From Deltaproteobacteria bacterium (GTDB taxonomy: Bacteria; Desulfobacterota; Desulfuromonadia; Desulfuromonadales; JAAYDE01): a stretch of DNA of 32,652 nucleotides. The stretch is from contig JAFZPK010000110.1 of NCBI GenBank assembly GCA_017552515.1, forward strand, positions 1-32,652, read 5' to 3'. Shown in pieces: positions 1 to 17,112 of the stretch. The translations under genes and the position numbers were made by a program. The notes beneath the pieces are model-generated. The model was not told the DNA's origin, did not search any database, and saw only the letters and a list, made by a program, of their open reading frames with translations. Within the stretch, counting starts at the first letter, position 1; every line of letters begins with the position of its first letter.

Positions 1-1
1 C

Positions 2-184
2 TACGAGGCGTTCTCCGCCCTCAGTTCGGAGCTGTGCCTTGCCTTTCTGATCGGCGGCCTCATATTTGCCCTGATTCTGACGCCCATCACCTACACCCTC
101 GTTCTTCAGCTGGTCACCCGCCACCGCAACAAGCGGGGCGGTAAAACGAACGCTGCCTCCAGCGCCCCGCCATCGGAAAGCTAG
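2..184 (+). CDS. C-terminal end of a DUF2062-like membrane protein (partial)
   Basis: The frame is open from the left edge and ends at TAG, giving the last 60 residues of a protein whose start lies outside the window. It has one strong hydrophobic segment (around residues 8-35 of the visible part, LCLAFLIGGLIFALILTPI) followed by a basic, Ala/Ser-rich tail ending SAPPSES. A hydrophobic hairpin near the C-terminus followed by a short basic tail is typical of DUF2062 proteins, small integral membrane proteins of unknown function. With so little sequence the family call is tentative; that it is the end of a membrane protein is clear. A possible terminator follows at 212-256. Confidence 0.5.
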   Translation, partial: YEAFSALSSELCLAFLIGGLIFALILTPITYTLVLQLVTRHRNKRGGKTNAASSAPPSES

Positions 185-211
185 CCCCCACAAAACCGTC
201 TTCCCCGTAGC

Positions 212-256
212 AAGCGGAGCAAAAAGAAATTAGTTTTCCCAACTATCCGCTTTTTT
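212..256 (+). terminator. Possible intrinsic terminator after the partial first gene
   Basis: AAGCGGA (212-218) pairs with TCCGCTT (246-252) and the stem runs directly into a six-T tract (251-256). The loop is long (27 bases, A/T-rich), which weakens the call. The position, just after the stop at 184 and before the next start at 347, fits termination of the upstream gene. Confidence 0.45.
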
Positions 257-346
257 GGTATTCTTCCTGCCCGTTGCGGCGTTTCAGGCAAAAAGGCCGC
301 AGCCATCACCGGAAAACACCTTTTTGCAAGGACAAGGGCTTGGTCT

Positions 347-2020
347 ATGGCTCACAAATTTCCCTTTACACGCTGGCGCATAGAAGACGTTCTGGATCTC
401 GAATACTTTCTTCATGCCGACAAGGAAAGCGGCTGCGACAAGGAAACACTGAAGCAGCGTGATCGCAGCATTTTCAACAAGATAAAGGCGAACTTTACAG
501 GAAAAGGCGATCTGGACCACGACAATACGCCGGAGGCACGCCGCTACCTGATCAAAAACTGGCTGGAAGCCCGCCGGGAAAAATCGAATAACAAGGAGTT
601 GCCCGGAGGCCTTTTTCACAGTACGTTGAGGCTCCTCAAGTGGGCTCTCGCGGTTTTGGGTGCCTTTTCCGGCGTGGGGCTTGCGCTCTCCCTGCTGCAA
701 TATGACGGAAAGATGCCCATCAATATTGCTTTCTACGGGGGACTGCTCATTGTGCTGCAGTTCGCCATCTTCATCCTGTTGATCACCTTTGGCATGTGGC
801 ACAAATTCGCGGCGCAATTCTTTACCTCGCTGTGGTGGGATCATCTGAGCAGGCTGCTGCTCTGTCTGAAACCGAAGGCACACAAAGCGGCGGAAAACGC
901 GCCCTCTGAACTGCGTGAGCGAATGTACGCCCTGTGCGGCCAACTAAAAATCCAAAACTCGATCTACGGCAACCTGTTCCTGCTGATAATCTCCCCCATA
1001 ACCCTGCTCTTTGGGCTGTGTTTCAACCTCGCCGCGCTGGTGGTCACCCTTGTCAAACTCTTTTTCACCGATCTCGCCTTCGGCTGGCAGAGCACTCTGC
1101 TGGTGCCTGAACAGATCCACGAGCTGGTAAAACTCATCGCCCGACCTTGGTCGTGGATGAACATATTCCGGGAGGGAATCGGCGTGCCCACGCTGGAGCA
1201 GGTTCAAAACAGCCATATCATCCTGAAAGATGGCGTCATTCATCTGCAAACCCCCGATCTGGTGTCCTGGGCGGCTTTTCTCTGTCTGGGCTTGCTTTTC
1301 TACGGTGTACTGCCGCGGATTCTGATATGGCTCCTCTCCCTGTGGAAACAGCGCCGTGCGCTGGCGAAGCTCGACTTCTCCCACGCATCCTGTCGGGAGC
1401 TACTCAGCCGGATGCGAACCCCGCAGGTCGTCTTCCACGAACGAGACAAAAACTCGGTAGCGGAACCCCAAACCGGCGGACAGTTCCAAAGCAAGCAAAG
1501 CAAAACCGGCGAACAGTCCCAAAGCACCGAGCAAAACGAAACCGGAGGATTGGGCACTCCCCCGGACATCTCAATTCCCATGCCACCTTCTGGAGAAGAA
1601 AACGGTGAAGAGGCGGTTGTCTTGCTGGAGGAAGATCTGGTGGAGGATGCATATCCCGCCGCTATTCAGACGCTGGGGGAGGAGATGTTTCAGCTGAGCA
1701 TCGGGGAAATGCTGACAGTGGGCGGTAACTTTAAACGAAATGAGGAATCACTCAAGCGCCTGGAGCAGCGGCAGTGGCGTCATAATGGTGCGGTGTTGCT
1801 GATCCTCTCCGCCTGGCAACCACCCATTGATGAAAAACTGGAGTTGTTGCGGCACCTGCGCCGCGTTCTGCCGGAGCATGGTCGCATTATTCTGCTGCTT
1901 ATCGGCAAACCCCGCCCAGACAGTATTCTCACACCGCCCAAACCGACGGATTATGATATCTGGAAACAGCGGGCTCTGGCACTAGGCGATCCCTGGCTGG
2001 AAATCATTGCTTGCGAGTGA
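347..2020 (+). CDS. DUF2868 family integral membrane protein
   Basis: This 557-residue protein resembles the DUF2868 family, membrane proteins of unknown function usually encoded directly before a DUF3482 GTPase, as here (next start 65 bp downstream). The N-terminus (1-90) is charged and soluble, with the family-like opening W-x2-E-D-V-L-D-L-E-Y. Hydrophobic segments lie near residues 97-117, 128-150, 208-240 (long, possibly two passes) and 307-335. A Gln/Thr/Gly-rich linker with short tandem repeats (about 372-405) leads to a soluble C-terminal domain (about 425-557), probably facing the same side as the GTPase. The start is ATG with AAGGACAAGGG upstream. Together the two genes probably form a membrane-tethered GTPase unit, but this is inference from gene pairing; no biochemical role is known to me. 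Confidence 0.8.
   Translation: MAHKFPFTRWRIEDVLDLEYFLHADKESGCDKETLKQRDRSIFNKIKANFTGKGDLDHDNTPEARRYLIKNWLEARREKSNNKELPGGLFHSTLRLLKWALAVLGAFSGVGLALSLLQYDGKMPINIAFYGGLLIVLQFAIFILLITFGMWHKFAAQFFTSLWWDHLSRLLLCLKPKAHKAAENAPSELRERMYALCGQLKIQNSIYGNLFLLIISPITLLFGLCFNLAALVVTLVKLFFTDLAFGWQSTLLVPEQIHELVKLIARPWSWMNIFREGIGVPTLEQVQNSHIILKDGVIHLQTPDLVSWAAFLCLGLLFYGVLPRILIWLLSLWKQRRALAKLDFSHASCRELLSRMRTPQVVFHERDKNSVAEPQTGGQFQSKQSKTGEQSQSTEQNETGGLGTPPDISIPMPPSGEENGEEAVVLLEEDLVEDAYPAAIQTLGEEMFQLSIGEMLTVGGNFKRNEESLKRLEQRQWRHNGAVLLILSAWQPPIDEKLELLRHLRRVLPEHGRIILLLIGKPRPDSILTPPKPTDYDIWKQRALALGDPWLEIIACE
1470..1550 (+). repeat. Short in-frame tandem repeat in the linker of the DUF2868 protein
   Basis: The heptamer AAACCGG occurs at 1470, 1503 and 1539, with offsets of 33 and 36 bases. 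The 24 or so bases after the first two copies are nearly identical (CCGGCGGACAGTTCCAAAGC versus CCGGCGAACAGTCCCAAAGC). Translated, this is a Thr-Gly-x-Gln-rich linker between the last membrane segment and the C-terminal domain. Offsets are multiples of three, so copy-number change would keep the frame. Confidence 0.75.
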
Positions 2021-2084
2021 AAACCTTCCCCCACTTCCTTCCCTGCGAAACGGATGAAGGGGGAGACAACAAAGGACATACACG

Positions 2085-4007
2085 ATGGATCAACCGCTTC
2101 GTTTCGCCATTGTCGGTACTCCCAATGTCGGCAAATCCTCCGTCATCTCCACACTGGCCGAAGACGACAAGGTGCCGGTCAGCCCGATTCCTGGAGAAAC
2201 CAAAGTCTGCCGCACCTACCCCATCACTATAGATGGCCAAACGCTCATCGAATTTATTGACACCCCAGGTTTCATGCATCCGCAAAGCACGTTGAACTGG
2301 CTGCAAGAACATCCGGGTGATGAGGCCATAAGCTTTTTCCGCGCCGAACACAGCGAGCTGAAAGCTTTCCATGACGACAACGAACTGCTGCGCCCGATTG
2401 CGGAGGGCGCCGGCGTCATCTACGTTGTGGACGGTTCCTGCCCGATAAGCGACGGCAATAAAGCGGAGATGGAGATTTTGCGGCTTTCTGGTGCACCTAG
2501 GCTCGCCATCATCAACTCCAAAGAAGATGACCGGCAGTTTTTGGAGAAGTGGAAAATAACGCTCCATCAACATTTCAATGCCACTTGGGAGTTTAATGCG
2601 CACCACGCCTGTTTCGCCGAACGCATCGCGCTGCTGGAAGCGCTGAGATTCCACCAGGAATGGAAACCAGCCATCGATCAGGCGGTCAACGCTTTAAAAG
2701 CCGATTGGGACGAACGACTCCGTAAAACCACCGATCTCATCTGCGATCTTCTGGAAGAAGCGCTCTGTCATGAAGACAAAATTGATTGTAACGAGACCAA
2801 TCGGGAGGAAAAGGAGAAGGAACTCCATGACCGTTTCTGTAAAAAGGTGATAGAGATAGAGGACGGTTTTCATGAGAAAATACGCAGTTTGTTCAAGCAC
2901 AACCTTTTTAAATACGAACCGCTGCCAGATTCCGAGTTCCGACGCAACCTGTTCAGCGAGGAAGTTTGGCAGGTATTGGGCTTAAACCATACACAGCTCA
3001 TACAGGCAGCGGCACTGCTCGGTGCTGGAATTGGAGCTGGGGTGGGAACAGTTAGCGGCACCCCCGTGGGCACTGCAATCGGTAGCGCGATTGGAGCCGC
3101 AATCGGCGCGGCTTCCGCCCACTTCGGCGGCGAAAGTATAGCCCGCAAACTGCGTCCCTCTGGAGTCGGAAAATTTTTATGGCCGTCTGTTGGCCGCACC
3201 CAACTAAAAATCGGGCCACTCTATGATCTGCAATTCTTTTTCGTTCTGCTCGATCGAGTACTGATCTTTTTGCCCTATGTCATCAACTGGGCACACGGCC
3301 GTCGTGAACCACCGCCTTCCAATACGTTGGCTGCCACCTATGAAAGTTACACCACCCAATGGCCGGACGAATGGCGCAAACATGCCATCAAATATTTCAC
3401 CGAGTTGAAACATAACAAGAAAAGAGCTTGGGGAGCCAATAAAGAGGATGTAGACAAATTTCAAAAGACACTGATGGAAATGCTCGAAAAGCTCTCGAAT
3501 GCCCAGGGGAATGATATCTTTTCCATCTATACCCCTGCACCAGGGACATCCCTGCCGAAAGCAACCGCTCCCAAGGCACCAGCATCGGAAGCACCTGTAT
3601 CAGAGACCTCTTCGCAGGAAATTAATGTCTCCGAAGCAGCCGTATCGGAAGTACCTGCAGCAGAAGGTTCTTCGCAGGAAGCAATCGCTCCTGAGACATT
3701 CGCCTCAGAAGCACTCGTATTGGAGGCATCTTCATCGAAAACAACCGCATCAGAGGCCTCTCCGCAGGAAACAACTGCTCCCGAGACATTCACATCGGAA
3801 GTACCCGTATCAGAGAATCCTTCAGCAGAAACAGCCGCTTCCGAAACACCCGCATCGGAAGCACCTGGACCAAAGATGTCCGCCGAGACTTCCACACCGG
3901 AAACGACTGATTCCGAAAGTGACAATTCCAAGGGGCGCTGGTGGTCTTGGGATCACCTTACCTCCACACTGAAAACGATCTATACCGAAAAGAGCAAAGA
4001 CAAGTAA
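2085..4007 (+). CDS. DUF3482-type GTPase with Gly-rich segment and pentapeptide-repeat tail
   Basis: A 640-residue P-loop GTPase of the Era/TrmE-like class with the DUF3482 C-terminal region. Visible G motifs are G1 GTPNVGKS (11-18), a Thr in the switch I region (GETKVCRTYPI, 37-47), G3 DTPGF (59-63) and a diverged G4 NSKEDD (144-149, normally NKxD). A charged helical stretch (about 205-290) precedes a Gly/Ala-rich segment (about 307-350) with many GxxxG spacings that could insert in or bind membrane. A conserved block RIGPLYDLQFFFxLL-like (about 373-400) follows, and the tail at 498-611 is 23 pentapeptide repeats. AAAGGA 8 bases before the ATG sets the start. It sits behind the DUF2868 membrane protein, its probable partner. 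Substrate and process are unknown. A frameshifted paralogue follows at 4212. Confidence 0.85.
   Translation: MDQPLRFAIVGTPNVGKSSVISTLAEDDKVPVSPIPGETKVCRTYPITIDGQTLIEFIDTPGFMHPQSTLNWLQEHPGDEAISFFRAEHSELKAFHDDNELLRPIAEGAGVIYVVDGSCPISDGNKAEMEILRLSGAPRLAIINSKEDDRQFLEKWKITLHQHFNATWEFNAHHACFAERIALLEALRFHQEWKPAIDQAVNALKADWDERLRKTTDLICDLLEEALCHEDKIDCNETNREEKEKELHDRFCKKVIEIEDGFHEKIRSLFKHNLFKYEPLPDSEFRRNLFSEEVWQVLGLNHTQLIQAAALLGAGIGAGVGTVSGTPVGTAIGSAIGAAIGAASAHFGGESIARKLRPSGVGKFLWPSVGRTQLKIGPLYDLQFFFVLLDRVLIFLPYVINWAHGRREPPPSNTLAATYESYTTQWPDEWRKHAIKYFTELKHNKKRAWGANKEDVDKFQKTLMEMLEKLSNAQGNDIFSIYTPAPGTSLPKATAPKAPASEAPVSETSSQEINVSEAAVSEVPAAEGSSQEAIAPETFASEALVLEASSSKTTASEASPQETTAPETFTSEVPVSENPSAETAASETPASEAPGPKMSAETSTPETTDSESDNSKGRWWSWDHLTSTLKTIYTEKSKDK
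3576..3917 (+). repeat. 15-bp coding repeat: 23 pentapeptide units xxxSE
   Basis: From APASE to TTDSE the translated sequence has Glu (twice Lys) at every fifth position, mostly preceded by Ser, Pro, Gln or Ala: for example APASE, APVSE, TSSQE, INVSE, AAVSE, VPAAE. There are 23 units; 22 are five residues and one is four (MSAE), which exactly accounts for 342 bp. A higher-order period of six units (90 bp) is visible: GSSQE-AIAPE-TFASE recurs as ASPQE-TTAPE-TFTSE. The units have diverged at DNA level, so this is an old repeat. Confidence 0.9.
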
Positions 4008-4057
4008 AATCACTTACCTGCTACACCCTTATAAAAAAACGTAATGCATAGTGCTCA

Positions 4058-4160
4058 TGTTTTTTCTGCCGCCCACAGGAAAACACTTTACGCACAAAGC
4101 GCTCCAATTCCCGCGCGCAATCCAGAACATCCACAATAGAAATCGGGATACAACAGACAA
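4058..4160 (-). pseudogene. Relic of the 3' end of the DUF192 gene
   Basis: On the minus strand this stretch translates to CARELERFVRKVFS, close to the C-terminus of the intact DUF192 protein at 5552-6094 (RARELERFVREKCS). At DNA level, 4079-4121 aligns with 5563-5607, including an identical core ACAAAGCGCTCCA. Both sites are flanked on the left by a poly-T run and both lie just downstream of a GTPase copy. Similarity fades rightwards towards 4160. I read it as the left-hand remnant of a tandem duplication of GTPase plus DUF192 tail. It has no start and is not expected to be expressed as protein. Confidence 0.75.
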
Positions 4161-4211
4161 CGCCATACAGATTGAAACCGACATACACAGAAAAATAAAG
4201 GATTCTACATA

Positions 4212-5520
4212 ATGGATAAGCCGCTTCGTTTCGCCTTTGTTGGTACACCAACTCTGGTAAATCCTCTGTCATCTCCACGCTGGTCGAAGACGACATGATA
4301 CCAATCAACCCGATTCCCGGAGAAACCAGTGTCTGCCGCACCTACCCCATTACCATCAATGGGCAAACGCTCATCGAATTTATCGATACCCCCGGTTTCA
4401 TGAATCCTCAGGCCACACTAAAGTGGCTAGAAAAACATCCGGGCGGTGAAACCATACGCCTTTTCCGCGCCGAGCACAGCGAGATAGATGCCTTCCGCTA
4501 CGACAACGAACTGCTGCGCCCGATTGAGGAGGGTGCCGGTATTATCTATGTCGTGGACGGATCCTGTCCGATAAACGGCAACAACCGGGCAGAGATGGAG
4601 ATTCTTCGGCTCTCCGGCGCGCCCCGGGTTGCCCTCATCAACTCCAAGGAAGAGAATCGACAATTTCTGGAAAAATGGAAAGAGGCACTCAACCAACATT
4701 TTAACATCATCTGGGAATTTAACGCACACTGCGCCTGCTTCGCCGAACGCATCCAGTTTTTGGAGGCACTCAAAGGGACCAAACAAGAATGGTGCACCAC
4801 CATTGATCAGGCGATCAACTCTTTACGTGCCGATTGGGACGAACGGCTCCATAAAACTACCGATCTCATCTGTGATTTTCTGAAAGAAGTGCTCGGCTAC
4901 GAGGACACAATTAACTGCGACAAGGCCAACCAGGAGGAAAAGGAAAAGGAACTCCAGGACCGCTTTTGTAAAAAGGTGATGGAAAGAGAGCATGATTTTC
5001 ATGAACAGATCCGCAAACTGTTCAAACACAACGCTACCTACCAACCACCTCCTGATTTAACGCTGCGAGGCAGTTTGTTTAGCGAAGACCTCTGGCATCG
5101 TATTCAGACAGTTGAAGGCGCTGTCAGCGAGAATTTCGACTACCTTCCTCACCTTCCTGTCTGCTGGTTCCTCCCCCCCACCGGAGACTTACGACCTATG
5201 CGGTCTTCTTCTTATGTGCTCCGGATCGGACCGCTTTACGATCTGCAGTTCTTCTTCATTCTGCTCGATCGTGCACTAATTTTTTTGTCCCATGTCATTA
5301 ACTGGACACACGGCCGCCGCGAACCGCCGTCTTCCAACATACCATCCGCCACTTCCGAAGAATATGTGGCACGGTGGCCAGCCATCCAATACTTCAAAGC
5401 ACTGAAAGACCACGAAGAAAAAGAGCCGATCGGCAAGGAAGCTCTGCAGGGATTTCAAACGGTGTTGATGGAAGTGCTCCACAAGATCTCAAGCACTCAG
5501 AAGAATGAGATTTTCACAAA
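4212..5520 (+). pseudogene. Second, frameshifted copy of the DUF3482-type GTPase
   Basis: This copy matches the GTPase at 2085 from its own AAAGGA ribosome site and ATG (4212) through to about 5520. One base is missing inside the P-loop: codons that should read GTP-N-x-GKS read GTPTLVNP, and this frame stops at 4298. The rest of the homology continues in the -1 frame from an ATG at 4295 that overlaps the TGA (ATGA) and lacks G1. It retains GETSVCRTYPI, DTPGF and NSKEEN. Compared with the intact copy it lacks the Gly-rich segment and the pentapeptide tail. It has no stop of its own: the open frame runs to 6112, antisense through the DUF192 gene. A sequencing error could explain the one-base loss but not the other losses. 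Confidence 0.8.
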
Positions 5521-5551
5521 ATCCGCAAGCAATTCGTTTTTTTCCTCTTTT

Positions 5552-6094
5552 CTATCGCTTGCGAGAACACTTTTCGCGTACAAAGCGCTCCAGTTCTCTC
5601 GCGCGCACATCAATACGATCGCCGGCCCGCACGTTCAGGACTTCCAGCTGGCCGCCGGCCAGTTCCAGCGCATAGCGGGCAGGGCGTTCGCTGGTATAGA
5701 TGGGCAGGCGCCGCTCGTAGTCATCCAGACTTTCCCCCGGGCGCCGGGGCGTTTCCCGTGGCATATGCTGCAGCCCCACCACACGGCCATCCGCATCCAA
5801 AAAGGCCACATCAATATCCATGCGGCAGTTCTTCATCCAGAAGTACAGGAAATTTTCCCTGGGATAAACGAACAGCATGCCGCCGCCCGGCGGCAGGGCG
5901 TCGCGATCCATCAGGCCCCTCTCATGCTCCCGCGCGGTCACCGACAACTCGATGCGTTCATGCGGCACACCGTTAATGTTCAGTGGCCAGTAACAGTCCT
6001 TGCGGGCATTACCGGAAGCAGCCCCCACCGCCCAACCTGCCCACATCACCATAAGAAAACAGCCCCAGGCCACAAGCGCGCCATGATGCTTCAC
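5552..6094 (-). CDS. DUF192 family exported protein
   Basis: A 180-residue protein with an N-terminal hydrophobic stretch (about 5-27, AWGCFLMVMWAGWAVGAAS) that looks like a signal peptide, followed by a DUF192 domain. Family-typical features are HERGLMDRDALPPGGGMLFV (about 57-76) and FWMKNCRMDIDVAFLD (85-100). DUF192 proteins are small beta-rich, mostly exported proteins of unknown function. The start is GTG at 6094, overlapping the rlmN stop as GTGA, which indicates translational coupling in a two-gene operon. A relic of its last codons sits at 4058-4160, and the decayed GTPase frame runs antisense through the whole gene. Confidence 0.85.
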   Translation of the reverse strand: MKHHGALVAWGCFLMVMWAGWAVGAASGNARKDCYWPLNINGVPHERIELSVTAREHERGLMDRDALPPGGGMLFVYPRENFLYFWMKNCRMDIDVAFLDADGRVVGLQHMPRETPRRPGESLDDYERRLPIYTSERPARYALELAGGQLEVLNVRAGDRIDVRARELERFVREKCSRKR

Positions 6095-7125
6095 GAGGTC
6101 GTCGTCCCCTGAGCACGCAACTGTCCGCAGGCGGCGAGGATGTCTGCCCCCTTGGAGGCGCGCCGCACCGCCACCAGGCCGCGATCGAGCAATGAAGTCT
6201 GAAAGGCCTCGATGCGTGCCTCTTCCGGACGGCGGAACGGACTTCCCGGATACTCGTTGAAGGGAATGAGATTGATCTTGGCCTTGACGCCATGCAGCAG
6301 CCGCACCAGCTGCCGCGCATCCTGCGGAGAATCGTTGACGCCCCGCAGCAGGATGTACTCGAAGGTGATGCGCTGGCGATCTTTCAGCGGGAAGGCCTTG
6401 CAGGCCGCCATCAGTTGTTCAAGCGGATAGCGGCGGTTGACGGGCATCAGCTGATCCCGCAGGGCATCATTTGCGGCATTGAGCGACACCGCCAACGAAG
6501 TGTCGGAACAGGCCCCCAGCCGGAGAATTTCCGGTACCAGTCCGCTGGTCGAGACCGTCAGTTTGCGGGAACTGAAGTTGAAACCCTCATCCATCCGCAA
6601 AATTTTCAGCGCCTTGACCAGATTGTCGAAATTGGCCAGCGGCTCCCCCATCCCCATGAAAACCAGATTGTTGACCGGCTCTTCCTCCATCACCGCGCAG
6701 ACCTGGCCGACGATCTCCGCGGCGGTCAGATTTCGTTTGAGCCCCATCGTGCCGGTCAGGCAAAAGGCGCAGCCCATGGCACAGCCCACCTGGCTGGAAA
6801 CACAGAGCGTCGCGCGCTCCTTGTCCATGGGAATGCGCACCGCCTCAATATGTTCGCCATCGGCAAGCGCCAGCAGATACTTGCGGGTACCGTCCACACT
6901 TTCCTGCACCCGGGCAACGGCAGGCAGCGAAATTTCCGCCACCTCCGCCAAATCCCGCCGGAAGTCCAGCGCCAGCGTGGTCATGGCGTCAAAGGAGCGC
7001 GCGCCGTGCCGGTAGATCCACTGCGCGATCTGGCGGGCGCGAAAGCGCTTGCCGCCCAAAGTGGCGACCAGCTCGGCCAGTTCATCCAGCGTCAGACCGA
7101 CAAGGTTGATTTTGTCCGTTGCCAT
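6091..7125 (-). CDS. rlmN: 23S rRNA (adenine-2503-C2)-methyltransferase RlmN
   Basis: A radical-SAM enzyme that methylates C2 of A2503 in 23S rRNA, and in some bacteria A37 of certain tRNAs. In the 344-residue form chosen here, the [4Fe-4S] motif CX3CX2C is at Cys115, Cys119 and Cys122 (CAMGCAFC), the SAM-contacting GMGEPL motif follows, and the C-terminal Cys333 (ILAACGQL) matches the methyl-carrying cysteine. The N-terminal helical domain begins KINLVGLTLDEL, as in known RlmN proteins. An in-frame ATG exists at 7179, but the ATG at 7125 has a better ribosome site (GGGAG, 9 bases away) and fits the family's N-terminus. The DUF192 gene overlaps its stop. Confidence 0.95.
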   Translation of the reverse strand: MATDKINLVGLTLDELAELVATLGGKRFRARQIAQWIYRHGARSFDAMTTLALDFRRDLAEVAEISLPAVARVQESVDGTRKYLLALADGEHIEAVRIPMDKERATLCVSSQVGCAMGCAFCLTGTMGLKRNLTAAEIVGQVCAVMEEEPVNNLVFMGMGEPLANFDNLVKALKILRMDEGFNFSSRKLTVSTSGLVPEILRLGACSDTSLAVSLNAANDALRDQLMPVNRRYPLEQLMAACKAFPLKDRQRITFEYILLRGVNDSPQDARQLVRLLHGVKAKINLIPFNEYPGSPFRRPEEARIEAFQTSLLDRGLVAVRRASKGADILAACGQLRAQGTTTS

Positions 7126-7243
7126 AAGATAGCTCTCCCATTCTCGTTTCACCCGGATCCCCTTCCGGAAAGGATCCATTGCCTACTCAAAAGTATAGCC
7201 CACCCCGATTTGGGAGGCCACTCCGGACCACTTTAAAATCCGC

Positions 7244-7283
7244 AAAAAAATACAGCCCCGGCAAGCCAAAACCTGCCGGGGCT
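7244..7283 (-). terminator. Intrinsic terminator of the PAS-GGDEF-EAL gene
   Basis: AGCCCCGGCA (7254-7263) and TGCCGGGGCT (7274-7283) form a perfect 10-bp GC-rich stem with a 10-base loop. On the minus strand it is followed by TGT and a seven-T run (7244-7250 read in reverse). It lies 43 bases after the stop at 7326 and before rlmN, separating the two transcription units. On the plus strand no T-run follows. Confidence 0.85.
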
Positions 7284-7325
7284 ACTGAGCTTTGCATTGA
7301 AAGATACGTTCTTATTCTGACCCTG

Positions 7326-9188
7326 TCATTTCAGGGGAACTTCCTGTCCCTTTTCAGAAGGCTCAGAACCCTCTCCGTCCGAGGGGCTGGCTGTAACAGA
7401 AGCAGGCGTTACATTTGCCTGTTCCCGGAAACACTCTTCCCAAAAATCTTCGGTTTCCCACTCCAGTCCCATCTCCCTCGTCAGACGGCGGGATTCCTCA
7501 AGAGGCATTGGCCGTGCGAAGTAAAAGCCCTGTGCGTAGTCGCAGCCGATCTTTTTCAGAAATTCCAAATGTTCTTTGGTTTCAACACCTTCCTGAAGCG
7601 CTTTGACCCCCAGAGCGCGCGCGCTCTGCACAATATTGTGGATGAGGTTGGCGGCTTGCGGATGTTCGTCGTAGGTACGCAGGAAATCCATGTCGAGCTT
7701 CAGCACATCAAAATCATAACTGAGCAAACGGTTGAGCGACGAGTACCCACTGCCGAAATCGTCGATCCAGACATGGTAACCAACATCGCGGAAATTTTTC
7801 ATTTCCTGCCGCAAGTGCAGGTAATCGTTGCTCATTGCACTTTCTGTAATTTCTATGTGAAGCAAGTTGCGGGGAATACTGTAGCGCAAACACGTTTGCT
7901 CAATTATTTCGAAGATGTTGCAGAGCTTGAAATCAAGCCGCGACAGGTTTATCGAGACGGGCACCACAGGCTCATTCTTGTCCAGCAGCGTCCTCAAATC
8001 CTCGCAAACCCTTTTTACAACAAAGATATCGACTTTGTGAACCAGGTGGAATTCCTCAAGCGTCGAGATAAAATCTCCCGGCGGGAGAAAGCCCTTTTTC
8101 GGATCAATCCAGCGCACAAGCGCCTCATACGCGCAGATCTTGCCTGTTTTCACACGGATGATCGGCTGATAGTAGACACAGAGGTATTCGTTTTCGACTG
8201 CCTTGTCTATCGTATTGACAACATACTTCTGAAGGCGCAGACGCTCATTGAGCGAGGAGTCGTACATGCCGTATATCTTGTCGTAGCGCTTCTTCACCGT
8301 GCTGCAGGCAAGGCGCGCGCGATCGCAGGCAGTCCGCACTTCGTCGCAGCTGTCTTCGAGTTTGTAAATACCGGCTTTGACTTCTATATGGGTACTCTCG
8401 TAAACAATTGCCATGAGCTTGTGAATGTTTTCAACGCTCATGATCACATTGGGCGAGGTCGTACACACAACGAAATGGTCACCGTCAAACCGCGCCACCT
8501 GGGCATCCGGGAATTCCTTAAGCAGGGTTTTCGCCATCTGGCACAGCAAATCATCACCGCGCTCGAAGCCATAGTCTTCATTGAACACTTTGAAGTGCGC
8601 GATATCAAAGTAAATAAAAAACACATCGGCGTTTTTGTACGCATTGGTCTCAAAGATGGCATCCTGGACATTCTCGTAAAACGAACGCCGGTTCATAAGA
8701 CCGGTCAGCCGGTCAAAATTCTGCATCTTGGAAAGGATTGCCGCTTCGGCCACGCTGTTGCTATCGCGGTTAAAGTACTCGTCCCTGCCTACATCGACGA
8801 TATAGACGTAGAAGTATTTCCGCCCCCCTTTGCCATGCAGAAGATGACCAAAATCTTCGATATAACGAGTTTTCCCCTGTTTGGTCAAAATGCGGTAGCG
8901 CACATAGTCGTGTATCTTCTCGCTTGAAAATGTTTGGGCGTGGATGTCGTTTTCAACTTTTTCAAGATCATCCGGATGCACCATGCCTTTAAAGCTGTTG
9001 CCGGTAAGCTCGCGGAATTCGGCTATGGTTTTGCAGCCAAACAGCTCGATGACATTTTGATCTGCGAAGTAGATTTCCTCGTCACCTTGCGCATTATAGA
9101 TAAAAAAGCCCCCTGGCAGACCTGTTGGGATGTAGTTCTCTTCCGGCCTCAATGCAATTTGCCCGTTGTTGTTCCTGTTCTCAGGCAT
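7326..9188 (-). CDS. PAS-GGDEF-EAL protein, probable cyclic-di-GMP phosphodiesterase
   Basis: A 620-residue cytosolic signalling protein with no membrane segment. A PAS-like sensor (about 25-135) is followed by a GGDEF domain (about 150-310) and an EAL domain (about 320-575). The GGDEF signature is spoiled (FDGDHF, 234-239) and the metal-site motif reads DIAHFK, so cyclase activity is unlikely; the domain may bind GTP as a regulator. The EAL domain keeps the expected metal and catalytic residues: E355 (EAL), N414, E446 (EITES), D476-D477 (DDFGSGYS), K497, E533 (EGVE) and Q553. It should therefore hydrolyse c-di-GMP. The C-terminal 45 residues are a low-complexity Ser/Glu-rich tail. It is a single-gene unit with a terminator at 7244-7283. 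What the PAS domain senses cannot be told. Confidence 0.9.
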   Translation of the reverse strand: MPENRNNNGQIALRPEENYIPTGLPGGFFIYNAQGDEEIYFADQNVIELFGCKTIAEFRELTGNSFKGMVHPDDLEKVENDIHAQTFSSEKIHDYVRYRILTKQGKTRYIEDFGHLLHGKGGRKYFYVYIVDVGRDEYFNRDSNSVAEAAILSKMQNFDRLTGLMNRRSFYENVQDAIFETNAYKNADVFFIYFDIAHFKVFNEDYGFERGDDLLCQMAKTLLKEFPDAQVARFDGDHFVVCTTSPNVIMSVENIHKLMAIVYESTHIEVKAGIYKLEDSCDEVRTACDRARLACSTVKKRYDKIYGMYDSSLNERLRLQKYVVNTIDKAVENEYLCVYYQPIIRVKTGKICAYEALVRWIDPKKGFLPPGDFISTLEEFHLVHKVDIFVVKRVCEDLRTLLDKNEPVVPVSINLSRLDFKLCNIFEIIEQTCLRYSIPRNLLHIEITESAMSNDYLHLRQEMKNFRDVGYHVWIDDFGSGYSSLNRLLSYDFDVLKLDMDFLRTYDEHPQAANLIHNIVQSARALGVKALQEGVETKEHLEFLKKIGCDYAQGFYFARPMPLEESRRLTREMGLEWETEDFWEECFREQANVTPASVTASPSDGEGSEPSEKGQEVPLK

Positions 9189-11666: not shown

Positions 11667-11805
11667 CCGCATTCCCAATGGGATCGTGAAAGCACCGGCT
11701 CTTGCCAAAGAAAAGTGTTCTGCCTCGGAAGCACAGGTTTCCCCAGGCATTGCCCTGTTTTGAAATGACAGCTTTTTGGTTCCTTCTTACATAAAAAGGA
11801 TTTCC

Positions 11806-14800
11806 ATGAATCATTCCCCTCTTCCACAAACAACCGTCACTCCCCTGGGAAACATCATGCTGTTTGCCGGAGGCACCCTGGCTGCGGCGGCAGCCGCCTG
11901 GAGCGCCGCTCTGGGGCGCCACTGGTTCAGCGTACCGGCCTGCGCCCTCTGCACATTGGCCGCACTGGCCTGTTTCCGGCAGCTGTTTACCCAAAAACGT
12001 CCCCCAAAGAACGAACTCTGTCACCACCTGCTGGCGGCGATTCTGCTGGCATTGGCGGTCGATCCCCAGATGGTCATCTGGCAGGTTCCCAAAGTCTGGC
12101 CGGAAGTCTTGCGAATCACCAGTCTCACCGGCGGTTTTCTGATCCTTTGCCTGGTGCTGAACACGCTGCGCCACACAATGACAAGCGCCGACACGCCGCA
12201 TCCGCTGGAGACGCTGGCCCTTCTTGTCAGCCCGGTACTTTTCAACAGCCTGCTGATGCTCAGTACTCCCGATCAGGTGGCGAAACTGGGCGCGTGGTGG
12301 GGAGCCTCCGGCCTATGCGCTCTGATCCTGGGGAGGACGATTATCCTTGGCCTGTTCAATGAAGTGGTGGGGCAACTGCTCAGCCTGCTGATTATCCGGC
12401 GGCCAATTCGCGAGTTCCGCCTGCATGCGCTGCTTATCGGTGCGGCGCTTTTGGCCGCGATTTCACCGGAATGCGCGCTGCTGGGCTCCTCGGCCAGTCT
12501 GGCGTCCTGGCCCAAACTTGCGGCCATACCGGCGGCCATCGGCGCTTCCATGCTGTCGCAAGCGGGTCTGTGGGCGCAAACCTTTCTGCTGACCGGCCTC
12601 ATCATGGACGTTTTCCACCACAAGAAGCCGACCGCCTACTGGGGAGAACGGCATTTCTGGTCGGGACTCGGCAAGGGAGCGGTCTATGCGCTGCTCTTCC
12701 TGGGGTTGATTCAGGTCATGGCTCTGTTTGTCCAGGTGCCACTCCTTAAATCCATTTTAACATTTTGTCCCATTCCCTGCGCGGCCGTGCTCGGCGCCCT
12801 GTCGTTTCCATTTTTCCAGACCATCGTTGAAAGCTTCGATGGAAGCGAGGCTTTCCATCGTCGTGTACGGCGCAACTACCGCGACTGGTCGGGAATGGCG
12901 CGCGGCGCGGTGGTGGGCGTGGGGATTGCACTGGCGGTACTGGTGCGTCTTCCGTCCGCATCCAGTTTCGGACGTTTTCTGTTTGGAGCAATCGTGGGCA
13001 TTGCGGCCTACGCCGGAGTCAACCTGCTCCGCGATCTGCTGCGGATCCGGCGGAAAGAGCGCAGCAATCTGCAAACCTGGCGTCTGTACGCGCTGGGCGC
13101 GATCCTGGGAGGATGCGCCGGCGGCGGACTCGCCTGGTATGTGGACGCTGCCCAAATTCAGGTGCTTGTGGCAAAATTCTTCAAGTACACCGCGCTGTTC
13201 TATCCCCAGGCCGGCATGGCGGTGGAAGACTATGTCATTTATCCGCTCTTCAGCAAGTGGGGCGCCGTCAATCTGGGCGCCTCTCCCGGAGCGGTGCGTC
13301 TCTTCTACAACGAGGCTCTCTCGGGCGTTATCAACTGGTCGCTGGCAGCGCCGCTCTTCAGCGTCAACATCGTCCTGCTCAACTCGCTTCTTCAACGCAG
13401 TCTGGCTCCGCTGAAAGGACTGTTCACCCGCGACGGCATCATCGGCGTGGTGGAACAGACATTGAGAGTACTGCGCTGGGGTCTGTGGATGGCGCCGGTC
13501 ATCTACTCGTTCCTGCGCATGTCGCCGGATCCGACCTGGTACAATCAGGACGGAGCCATCCGTACCGTCATGGCCACAGTGCAGGCCTGGCTTCTGGAAC
13601 CTTCCGCCTATCGCGCCTGGAGCCTCGACCTCTTTCTCAAGATGATGACCTACGACTGGCTGCGCATCCTTATCTGGGTCGATCACATGGGGCTGCGGGT
13701 AGCGACCCTGGTCAACCTCTCCTTTGTGGGATTCGACATTCTGGATGAAAAGGCCGCCCACGCGCTGGGCTGTTCCGCACGGACCCGCTGCATTCCCGAA
13801 GGGATCCGCCGCTTCGCCACCTGGGCGCCGCTGCTCATCCCCTTCTATCTGCCACGCGGCGCGGACTGGAGCTATGTGTGGGATACTTCCGCGGCACGCG
13901 CGGCAGAACTGGCCGCAACTTCCTGGCCACCCATCAACTACCTGCTGGCAGCCTTTATCTTTCTCATGGCACTGACCGGTTTGACGCTGGCCCTCCACCG
14001 CCGGGCAAAAGCCTCCGTTTCCGCCCCCTCTCCGGCACTGGCTCCCCCGGCCTGTCATCTGCTTGGCAACGGTCGCTACACCGTCGAGATCTCCGAAAAC
14101 GGATGTGGTTACAGCCGGGTTTTCAGTGGTGTCCGCAAGGGGTTTGAGCTCGATCTGACCCGCCGTCCCGACGATCCGCTCCAGTGGCGGGGCAAGTTCT
14201 TCTACGTGACCGAAAAAGGGAAAAAGGACTGGTGGGCGGCAAGTCCCGGTCCCTCGAAAACCACCGTTGACACCATCTGCACCCGTCCCGATCCGCTGAC
14301 GATTGTTTTCGAACGCTCCCACAACGGGCTCAGGGTGATAAGCACCGTCTCGCTGAACCCGGATCAGACGCTGGAATACCGCTCTTTGCGTTTCATCAAC
14401 CTGGAGGATCGGCCGCGTAGCCTGGAGCTGGCCAGCTATCAGGAATTTGGCCTGAACAACACCGACGCCTACCGCCGCGCGCCGTTCTACAACTTCCTGC
14501 ACATCGGCGTGCGCTTCAACCGCCCGTTCACCGCTCTGCTGGCGCAGAACCGTCTCAACAAGACGGATCATGAGGATCCAACCTTGAGAAAAATGTCCGG
14601 AGAGACGGCGTTTCATGCGATCATCCCGGGCGAAGGCATCACGCTTCTAGGCTACGACGATTCACGCACCGACTTTCTGGGACGCGCGACCGCGCTTTCG
14701 CCGGATGCGCTCAACCGGCCGCCCGCCCATTCGCCCTGCGATGAAACGCTGCACTATACCTTCGATCCGGCCGCAAGCCTGCGCCTGGGCGTGGAACTTG

Positions 14801-17112
14801 AGGCTCACGGTGTCCGGGAAGTGCGCTTCGTCGACGGCTATGCCGCAAGCGAAGCCGAAGCAATGGCGGAGCTGGGCAAGCTCCGGCATCCTGCCCCCGA
14901 GGCCGCAGGATCCGCGGACAACGAGCAGCCCCTGCCTCAAAAACCGGTCCCAGAGCCCGCAAGGCAGCTTTTCTCCTTCTCTTCCTCGGGAGACGAGCTG
15001 ACGCTTTCCGACAAAACGCCCCGTCCCTGGCACCATATCATGGCCAATCCTCTGGGATACGGCCTGATGGTCGCCAACGACGGTTCCGCCTCTTCCTTCA
15101 TGCAGAACGGCCAGCAAAACGGCATCACCCCCTGCGATACCGATTCGGTCTGTTCCCAGCTGCCGGGGCAGGTTTTCTACATCCACGACATGGATCGCAA
15201 CGAAACCACAACGCCCGGCTTTGTTCCCCTGCGCCAGGCGGGAGATTTCCAGAACACCTGGGGCGTGGGCTACGCCATCCAGCAGCATGAAACCGAAAAG
15301 GCGCGCATTGCCCTGACCCGTTTCGTCCTCCCGGACGAGCCCGCGGAACTGCTGCTGCTCAAACTTGAAAACCGCTCCGCGGAAACCGCGCGTTACCGGC
15401 TGACCCCCTACTTCCAGCTTCTGCTGGGCGAAACGCCGGTGGACACGCGCTCCCGCCTGAACACCGAAAAACGCGGGGATCTGCTACTGGCCTCCAATCC
15501 CGCAAACGACTTCTGGAAAGGCTGGGCCTTTGCCGCGGCAACCTTCAGGGTTTCCGCCATGGAAACCGTGCGTGCCCGTTTCCTGGGCGGCCACGATCTG
15601 GAAAATCCGGTCATGGTGACGACGGGCCTTTCCGCCCAAAACGCGCCTGATGACGGATTCCGCTGCTTTGCCCTGAGCGGCGAGGTCAGCATTCCGCCAG
15701 GGAAGACCATCGAAGTGGGTGTCCTTTTGGGACAGACCGCCACTCCCGAAGAGGCCGAAAAACTGGCAAGGGCCTTCTCCTCTGTTGAGGCAATGCGCCA
15801 GGCCCTTGAAAAAACCCGGGCCTGGTGGCGCGCCATGCTGGAAAAGGGGCAGGTCGCCAGCGGTGACGAAGCTGTGGACCGGCTGCTCAACATCTGGCTG
15901 CCCTACCAGGTGCTGGTCGCCCATCTGTGGGGACGGATAGGCCCCTACCAGCGCGGCGGCGCCTTCGGCTTCCGCGATCAGCTGCAGAGCGTTCTGGCCC
16001 TGACCCACACCCATCCGGAAATCGCGCGCAGCCAGATCCTGCTCAACGCCGCCCAGCAGTTTCCGGAAGGCGATGTTCTGCACTGGTGGCACCTGAGCTG
16101 GGAGGGCAAAACCGGCATCGGCATGCGCGGCAACGCTTCCGATCCGCATCTCTGGCTGCCCTACGTCGTCTGCCAGTATCTTGAAGATACCAATGATTAT
16201 GGCATCCTGGATGAATGCTCCCACTTCCTGGAAGCACCCGCCGGAGCGGCGGTGGTGGCCTCGCGCCCGTCCCGTGACACGGCGACGCTTTATGAACACT
16301 GCGTCCGCGCCATCGAGCTTGCCCTGCGGCGATACGGACCGCATGAGCTGCCGCTTCTGGGTGCCGGAGACTGGAACGACGGGCTGGATACCGCGGGCTT
16401 CAAGGGACGCGGTGAAAGCGGCTGGATGGGATTCTTCCTCTACGGGATTCTCAACAGTTTCGCGAAGGTCGCGGACAGGCGGGGCGACAACGAACGGGCC
16501 CGGGCGTACCGCGAGAAAGCCGCCCGTCTCAAAGAAGCCCTGGAACACATCTGGCGCGGCGATCACTATGTACGGCTCATCACCGATGACGGCAGGGAAT
16601 CCAACCGGAACGACGCGCTGATGGCAGCCTGGCCGATTCTCTCCGGCGCGGTCGATGCCGTCCGCGGCCGGGAAATCATGGCGGCGGCGCTCAGCACGCT
16701 GGAACGGGATCGTCTGGTGCAGCTCTTCGATCCGCCCTATACCGAAAATGACGACCTCTATCCGGGACGTCTGGCCGACTATCCCCCAGGTGTGCGTGAA
16801 AACGGCGGCCAGTACACTCATGGTGTCTCCTGGCTGGTAGATGCATTGCTGGTACTGGAGCAGAGTTGCAACAATGCCTCGCAAGCGGCTCATGACCACC
16901 AGCGCGCCGTTGATCTGTGGCGCAAAATATCGCCGCTTGCGCACACGGACGATCCGGAAGACATGCAGGTGTACGGGCTGCCTCCCCATCAGCAGACGGC
17001 AGATATCTACTATGCGCCGGCCTATAAAGGGCGCGGAGGCTGGAGCTGGTACACCGGCGCAGCCGCCCGCATGCTGTACGTGGGAAGAAAGCTTTTCGGC
17101 ACCCGGCGATAG
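11806..17112 (+). CDS. Multi-spanning membrane protein fused to a cellobiose-phosphorylase-like (GH94/GH36-type) domain
   Basis: A 1768-residue protein. Residues 1 to about 740 contain many hydrophobic segments, the last near 711-732. From about 745 it resembles the GH94/GT36 group (cellobiose and chitobiose phosphorylases, and the C-terminal part of cyclic beta-1,2-glucan synthases). It has two beta-sandwich-like modules (starting at GNGRYTVEISENGCGYSR and at NPLGYGLMVANDGS) and then an (alpha/alpha)6-barrel with AFGFRDQLQS, HWWHLSWEGKTGIG and GDWNDGLD (about 1522). The Asp in the last motif is the general acid in this family. I saw no glycosyltransferase-84 region such as cyclic glucan synthases have. 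The start at ATG 11806 follows AAAAAGGA. A role in making, trimming or recycling a beta-glucan at the inner membrane is inference. The activase gene follows 37 bp downstream. Confidence 0.8.
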   Translation: MNHSPLPQTTVTPLGNIMLFAGGTLAAAAAAWSAALGRHWFSVPACALCTLAALACFRQLFTQKRPPKNELCHHLLAAILLALAVDPQMVIWQVPKVWPEVLRITSLTGGFLILCLVLNTLRHTMTSADTPHPLETLALLVSPVLFNSLLMLSTPDQVAKLGAWWGASGLCALILGRTIILGLFNEVVGQLLSLLIIRRPIREFRLHALLIGAALLAAISPECALLGSSASLASWPKLAAIPAAIGASMLSQAGLWAQTFLLTGLIMDVFHHKKPTAYWGERHFWSGLGKGAVYALLFLGLIQVMALFVQVPLLKSILTFCPIPCAAVLGALSFPFFQTIVESFDGSEAFHRRVRRNYRDWSGMARGAVVGVGIALAVLVRLPSASSFGRFLFGAIVGIAAYAGVNLLRDLLRIRRKERSNLQTWRLYALGAILGGCAGGGLAWYVDAAQIQVLVAKFFKYTALFYPQAGMAVEDYVIYPLFSKWGAVNLGASPGAVRLFYNEALSGVINWSLAAPLFSVNIVLLNSLLQRSLAPLKGLFTRDGIIGVVEQTLRVLRWGLWMAPVIYSFLRMSPDPTWYNQDGAIRTVMATVQAWLLEPSAYRAWSLDLFLKMMTYDWLRILIWVDHMGLRVATLVNLSFVGFDILDEKAAHALGCSARTRCIPEGIRRFATWAPLLIPFYLPRGADWSYVWDTSAARAAELAATSWPPINYLLAAFIFLMALTGLTLALHRRAKASVSAPSPALAPPACHLLGNGRYTVEISENGCGYSRVFSGVRKGFELDLTRRPDDPLQWRGKFFYVTEKGKKDWWAASPGPSKTTVDTICTRPDPLTIVFERSHNGLRVISTVSLNPDQTLEYRSLRFINLEDRPRSLELASYQEFGLNNTDAYRRAPFYNFLHIGVRFNRPFTALLAQNRLNKTDHEDPTLRKMSGETAFHAIIPGEGITLLGYDDSRTDFLGRATALSPDALNRPPAHSPCDETLHYTFDPAASLRLGVELEAHGVREVRFVDGYAASEAEAMAELGKLRHPAPEAAGSADNEQPLPQKPVPEPARQLFSFSSSGDELTLSDKTPRPWHHIMANPLGYGLMVANDGSASSFMQNGQQNGITPCDTDSVCSQLPGQVFYIHDMDRNETTTPGFVPLRQAGDFQNTWGVGYAIQQHETEKARIALTRFVLPDEPAELLLLKLENRSAETARYRLTPYFQLLLGETPVDTRSRLNTEKRGDLLLASNPANDFWKGWAFAAATFRVSAMETVRARFLGGHDLENPVMVTTGLSAQNAPDDGFRCFALSGEVSIPPGKTIEVGVLLGQTATPEEAEKLARAFSSVEAMRQALEKTRAWWRAMLEKGQVASGDEAVDRLLNIWLPYQVLVAHLWGRIGPYQRGGAFGFRDQLQSVLALTHTHPEIARSQILLNAAQQFPEGDVLHWWHLSWEGKTGIGMRGNASDPHLWLPYVVCQYLEDTNDYGILDECSHFLEAPAGAAVVASRPSRDTATLYEHCVRAIELALRRYGPHELPLLGAGDWNDGLDTAGFKGRGESGWMGFFLYGILNSFAKVADRRGDNERARAYREKAARLKEALEHIWRGDHYVRLITDDGRESNRNDALMAAWPILSGAVDAVRGREIMAAALSTLERDRLVQLFDPPYTENDDLYPGRLADYPPGVRENGGQYTHGVSWLVDALLVLEQSCNNASQAAHDHQRAVDLWRKISPLAHTDDPEDMQVYGLPPHQQTADIYYAPAYKGRGGWSWYTGAAARMLYVGRKLFGTRR

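What the first reader, a model, noticed from the sequence alone, without database searches (positions are those of the whole stretch)
4058..6112. Tandem duplication of GTPase plus DUF192 tail, revealed by a gene relic
Between the two GTPase copies, 4079-4121 matches the 3' end of the DUF192 gene (5563-5607), in the same orientation and at the same relative place after the GTPase. The peptide ARELERFVR is preserved. The simplest history is a tandem duplication with one end inside DUF192, followed by decay. This locus catches a paralogue in the act of being lost.
Basis: partly seen in the sequence, partly recalled or inferred. Interest (0 to 1): 0.6.

Follow-up and report, generated by a model that had tools for sequence, protein, structure and literature searches.

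The report
Decaying duplicate GTPase beside gene relic
A bacterial GTPase gene was duplicated in tandem together with the last ~45 bases of its neighbour, and the second copy is now falling apart (its GTP-binding loop is frameshifted); this is a clear but ordinary example of gene duplication and loss, helped by a second allele of the same locus that has only one copy.

Summary
Window 4079-4122 matches the 3' end of the DUF192 gene (5563-5612), same orientation, far above chance (score 51, best of 1000 shuffles 28), and occurs nowhere else in the assembly. It stops at ~4122; the next ~70 bp match nothing. GTPase copies A (2085-4007) and B (4212-~5530) align collinearly (78% over 832 columns, plus further collinear blocks including the relic). 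In N-terminal trees A and B are sisters relative to the GTPase of contig C182, an alternative assembly path leaving the same contig end (exact 141-base fork) with DUF2868-one GTPase-RlmN. None of 65 relatives' loci has two GTPases. A tandem duplication with one breakpoint inside the DUF192 tail and the other near the GTPase ribosome-binding site is well supported. Not supported: 'GTPase then DUF192' in relatives; DUF192 sits beside the GTPase only here. Unexplained: the relic is better preserved (83%) than silent sites of A versus B (~60%). Ordinary evolution; low-to-moderate interest.

The parts
347..2020 (+). DUF2868 gene, the usual partner directly upstream of the DUF3482 GTPase
   Evidence: PF11067 E=4.9e-65; upstream of the GTPase in relatives
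2085..4007 (+). GTPase copy A, intact: MMR_HSR1 domain, DUF3482, glycine-zipper segment, plus an A-private S/T/P/E-rich C-terminal tail of ~150 aa
   Evidence: PF01926 7e-15, PF11981 1.5e-48; alignment
4033..4067 (+). Decayed terminator after copy A, homologous to a strong hairpin after the single GTPase in C182
   Evidence: alignment score 29, 0 of 1000 shuffles; folding z -0.8 here versus -6.3 in C182
4079..4122 (-). Relic of the 3' end of DUF192 (ARELERFVR frame kept)
4123..4211 (.). Spacer: ~70 bp with no detectable homologue in DUF192, upstream of A, upstream of the C182 GTPase, or elsewhere in the assembly; the last ~20 bp (ribosome-binding-site region, AAGGATTCTACATA) resemble the 5' leaders of A and C182 by eye
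4212..5530 (+). GTPase copy B, decaying: 1-base deletion in the P-loop near 4250, membrane segment largely deleted near 5100-5217, stop codon lost so the frame runs on to 6112
5552..6094 (-). Intact DUF192 gene, overlapping the rlmN stop codon
   Evidence: PF02643 E=1.4e-25; ORF
6091..7179 (-). rlmN (rRNA methyltransferase, radical SAM)
   Evidence: PF21016, PF04055

Best explanation
An ancestral locus DUF2868-GTPase(+)-terminator converging on DUF192-RlmN(-) underwent a tandem duplication of a ~2 kb unit running from the ribosome-binding-site region of the GTPase to a point ~50 bp inside the 3' end of DUF192. The product is DUF2868-GTPase A-(terminator)-DUF192 stub-GTPase B-DUF192-RlmN. Shown: collinearity, the stub, sister relationship of A and B in the N-terminal part, single GTPase elsewhere. 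Inferred: that stub and B arose in one event, and that DUF192 stood there before it. Afterwards B lost function: frameshift in the GTP-binding P-loop, deletion of the membrane segment and of the stop codon, excess change at conserved residues. Copy A, next to its DUF2868 partner, presumably kept the function, whatever that is for this uncharacterised pair.
For: Collinear blocks including the relic and shuffle test. Relic unique in the genome. Longest exact match between the A and B regions is 27 bp and between relic and DUF192 13 bp, which makes a mis-assembly through these repeats unlikely in an assembly with 141-base overlaps. N-terminal trees put A and B together against C182 (SH-aLRT/bootstrap 96.5/97 protein, 98.6/100 DNA). 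One GTPase in each of 17 relatives with a match and in all 65 loci of the second collection. C182 gives the same locus with one GTPase. B broke 41 of 185 positions invariant in the others versus 5 of 149 for A and 3 of 147 for C182 (Fisher B against A p=3e-7, N-terminal part alone p=0.004).
Against: No relative has GTPase next to DUF192, so the ancestral order is not seen independently; only a weak 17-base resemblance after the C182 terminator hints that DUF192 was once there too (19 of 1000 shuffles as good). The relic (35/42) is more alike than fourfold sites of A and B (49/83; binomial p=0.0007, post hoc). In the C-terminal part A-B sisterhood is not recovered. The ~70 bp after the stub have no source.
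Confidence: 0.68

Rival explanations
1. Recombination between diverged alleles: GTPase B (with or without DUF192) came from another strain by unequal or Campbell-type exchange in the DUF192 tail, so the copies were already diverged when the tandem formed and the stub is the younger scar.
For: The DUF2868-GTPase operon differs by ~25% between two co-binned paths that are identical over 141 bp upstream and 94% alike (identical over the last 62 bp) at rlmN, so divergent alleles seem to coexist at this site. A, B and C182 are nearly equidistant at silent sites (0.56-0.71 fourfold identity in the N-terminal part). In the C-terminal part B is nearer to C182 (73% aa) than to A (56%). The relic is better preserved than silent sites of A/B.
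Against: N-terminal trees join A and B with good support. No donor allele closer to B has been seen. The better preservation of a 42-base relic is a post hoc observation.
Confidence: 0.22
2. Insertion history: the C182 order (GTPase-terminator-RlmN) is ancestral and a segment carrying GTPase B and DUF192 was inserted, with the stub a by-product of the insertion.
For: DUF192 is rare in the class: 5 of 276 other genomes, none in the three family members held; it is absent from C182.
Against: A DUF192 tail beside A, in the place and direction expected of a neighbour, is hard to get without a DUF192 already next to a GTPase.
Confidence: 0.08
3. Assembly chimera of two strain haplotypes.
For: The bin appears to be a strain mixture at this locus (fork of C93 into C136 and C182).
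Against: No shared word long enough at the junction: longest common stretch relic/DUF192 13 bp, A/B 27 bp.
Confidence: 0.02

Closest known systems
Tandem gene duplication with a truncated neighbour at the novel joint, followed by pseudogenisation (general bacterial process)
   Same: Collinear repeat unit, truncated neighbour at the joint, one copy intact and one degenerating
   Different: The copies are old (silent sites ~60% identical) although the truncated stub is still readable
DUF2868 (PF11067) - DUF3482 GTPase (PF01926+PF11981) gene pair, seen here in deltaproteobacterial MAGs, Chromatiaceae and others
   Same: Copy A has both domains and lies directly after DUF2868
   Different: A second, broken GTPase copy and an adjoining DUF192/RlmN pair, found in no other relative examined
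DUF192 (PF02643, COG1430)
   Same: Full-length gene at 5552-6094 above the curated cut-off
   Different: The relic holds only the C-terminal extension, outside the Pfam domain

Membership tests
Tandem duplication with one breakpoint in DUF192 | Continuous collinear alignment of the two units, same orientation | tested here: met
   Four collinear blocks
Tandem duplication with one breakpoint in DUF192 | Copies are each other's closest relatives | tested here: inconclusive
   N-terminal part yes (support 97-100), C-terminal part unresolved
Tandem duplication with one breakpoint in DUF192 | Unduplicated state in relatives: single GTPase | tested here: met
   C182, 17 genomes, 65 loci
Tandem duplication with one breakpoint in DUF192 | Unduplicated state in relatives: GTPase followed by DUF192 | tested here: not met
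   No DUF192 next to the GTPase in C182 or any other relative; no genome of the same genus was returned among the relatives
Pseudogene (GTPase B) | Frame disruption in an essential motif | tested here: met
   1-base deletion in the P-loop; no ATG/GTG/TTG start restores it, first start at 4295
Pseudogene (GTPase B) | Relaxed constraint | tested here: met
   41/185 conserved residues changed or missing versus 5/149 and 3/147
Pseudogene (GTPase B) | No expression or activity | not testable with these tools
   No transcript or protein data
DUF3482 GTPase family (PF01926 + PF11981) | Both domains above curated cut-off | tested here: met
   Copy A 55.6 bits (cut-off 21.9) and 166.1 (29.2); the copy B frame only DUF3482, 105 bits

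The most novel reading that the evidence does not exclude
The DUF2868-GTPase operon is a site where highly diverged alleles are exchanged between coexisting strains of one population, with flanks kept nearly identical, and the tandem GTPases are the scar of an unequal exchange between two such alleles, so that the DUF192 stub is younger than the divergence of the GTPases it separates.
Probability: 0.22. Interest if true: 0.4.

Novelty: new member of a known kind. Interest (0 to 1): 0.27.

Why it matters
It is a compact, readable example of how a tandem duplicate is created and lost: joint, stub, single-copy allele and decaying copy are all present in one assembly. If the allele-exchange reading is right, it would point to an uncharacterised but widespread GTPase pair (DUF2868/DUF3482) as a locus under diversifying exchange, which would be a clue to its function.

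Tried and rejected
Relic as a repeated regulatory element: rejected, only two places in the genome. Relic as a longer DUF192 remnant: rejected, nothing beyond ~4122. Relic ORF 4021-4341 (minus, 106 aa) as a gene: no Pfam family, and it only reads through the stub and the terminator region. The 4123-4211 spacer as a piece of the 5' leader of A or C182, or of another repeat: no significant match apart from ~20 bp by eye at the ribosome-binding site. First scan of genome contigs with copy A alone found nothing; the profile scan worked. Literature: DUF3482 and DUF2868 are named in only two and three held papers; the one read (PMC12864544) calls both of unknown function.

Full report
Observation. 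Nucleotide comparison of 1-4212 with 4200-8200 gives four collinear plus/plus blocks: the N-terminal ~830 nt of the GTPase (78%), a block around the 'IGPLYDLQFFF...HGRREPP' stretch (83%), a block near the C-terminus (71%), and the relic 4079-4118 against 5563-5604 (35/42, E=2e-6). A dinucleotide-shuffle test puts the relic at score 51 against a maximum of 28 in 1000 shuffles and extends it to 4079-4122 / 5563-5612. The core is found only at these two places in the 1.66 Mb assembly.

Genes. 347-2020 DUF2868; 2085-4007 GTPase A (MMR_HSR1 + DUF3482 + glycine zipper); 5552-6094 (-) DUF192; 6091-7179 (-) RlmN. Copy B starts at 4212 as MDKPLRFAFVGTP and then loses one base in the P-loop (GGTACACC-AACTCTGGTAAATCC), so that the motif GTPNxGKS is split between frames; the rest of the frame is open and runs past its lost stop codon into sequence antisense to DUF192, to 6112. 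The membrane segment is largely deleted.

A second allele. The assembly holds a 3821-bp contig, C182, whose first 141 bases are identical to the first 141 of the window and to the end of contig C93. I read this as a fork in the assembly graph; 141 is a common largest word size of metagenome assemblers (my knowledge, not tested). C182 carries DUF2868 (73% aa), one intact GTPase (68-70% aa) and, after a strong terminator hairpin, the end of RlmN (94% nt, the last 62 bases identical), with no DUF192 and no second GTPase. So the same place exists with one GTPase. Allele of another strain is the simplest reading; a second locus in one genome is not excluded. The terminator has a decayed counterpart after A (4033-4067), just before the relic, which supports that the relic lies where a converging neighbour's 3' end would lie.

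Relatives. Each of 17 relatives with a match has exactly one GTPase. In 65 loci from a second collection (the closest titled Deltaproteobacteria/Desulfuromonadaceae, then Desulfocapsaceae, Desulfofustis, Desulfamplus; beyond them many Chromatiaceae) all but one have a detectable DUF2868 before a single GTPase; none has a second GTPase, DUF192 or RlmN beside it. DUF192 is found in 5 of 276 other genomes of the class and in none of the three family members held. The tandem copy and the DUF192 neighbour are thus private to this lineage as far as sampled; no genome of the same genus appeared among the relatives.

History. In the N-terminal part A and B are sisters against C182 (96.5/97 protein, 98.6/100 DNA); in the C-terminal part the order is unresolved. 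Fourfold sites in the N-terminal part are 59% identical between A and B, 71% between A and C182, 56% between B and C182: the duplication is old or involved diverged alleles. B broke 41 of 185 positions that are invariant in the others, A 5 of 149, C182 3 of 147 (Fisher B against A p=3e-7, N-terminal part alone p=0.004). Because third-position changes still predominate in B (57, 41, 77 by position) and the frame is otherwise open, most of its divergence probably accrued under constraint and the loss is recent.

Verdict. Tandem duplication of 'GTPase + DUF192 tail' with later decay is the best explanation (0.68). The relic is better preserved than expected for neutral DNA of the age of the A/B split (35/42 against ~0.59; p=0.0007, post hoc), which leaves room for recombination between diverged alleles (0.22).

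Noticed in passing
window 1-141; contigs C93, C136 and C182 of the assembly: Exact 141-base fork: two alternative paths (window and C182) leave the same contig end and diverge at once to ~77% identity over the DUF2868-GTPase operon, then come back to near identity in rlmN; looks like strain variation with a replaced operon.
   Followed up: partly
window 3536-3960: GTPase A ends in a ~150-aa S/T/P/E-rich tail containing a 90-bp tandem repeat (1.9 copies at 3669-3838), absent from B, C182 and the family relatives aligned.
   Followed up: partly
window 6091-6094: DUF192 overlaps the rlmN stop codon, suggesting translational coupling; DUF192 is rare in this class and may have been acquired recently.
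   Followed up: partly
window 5524-5563: A hairpin with a 7-bp stem and long loop (z -2.9) lies between the end of GTPase B and the end of DUF192 where the original terminator should be.
   Followed up: no
window 11776-17112: 1778-aa protein with N-terminal hydrophobic region and C-terminal GH94 supersandwich and catalytic domains (cyclic glucan synthase-like).
   Followed up: no
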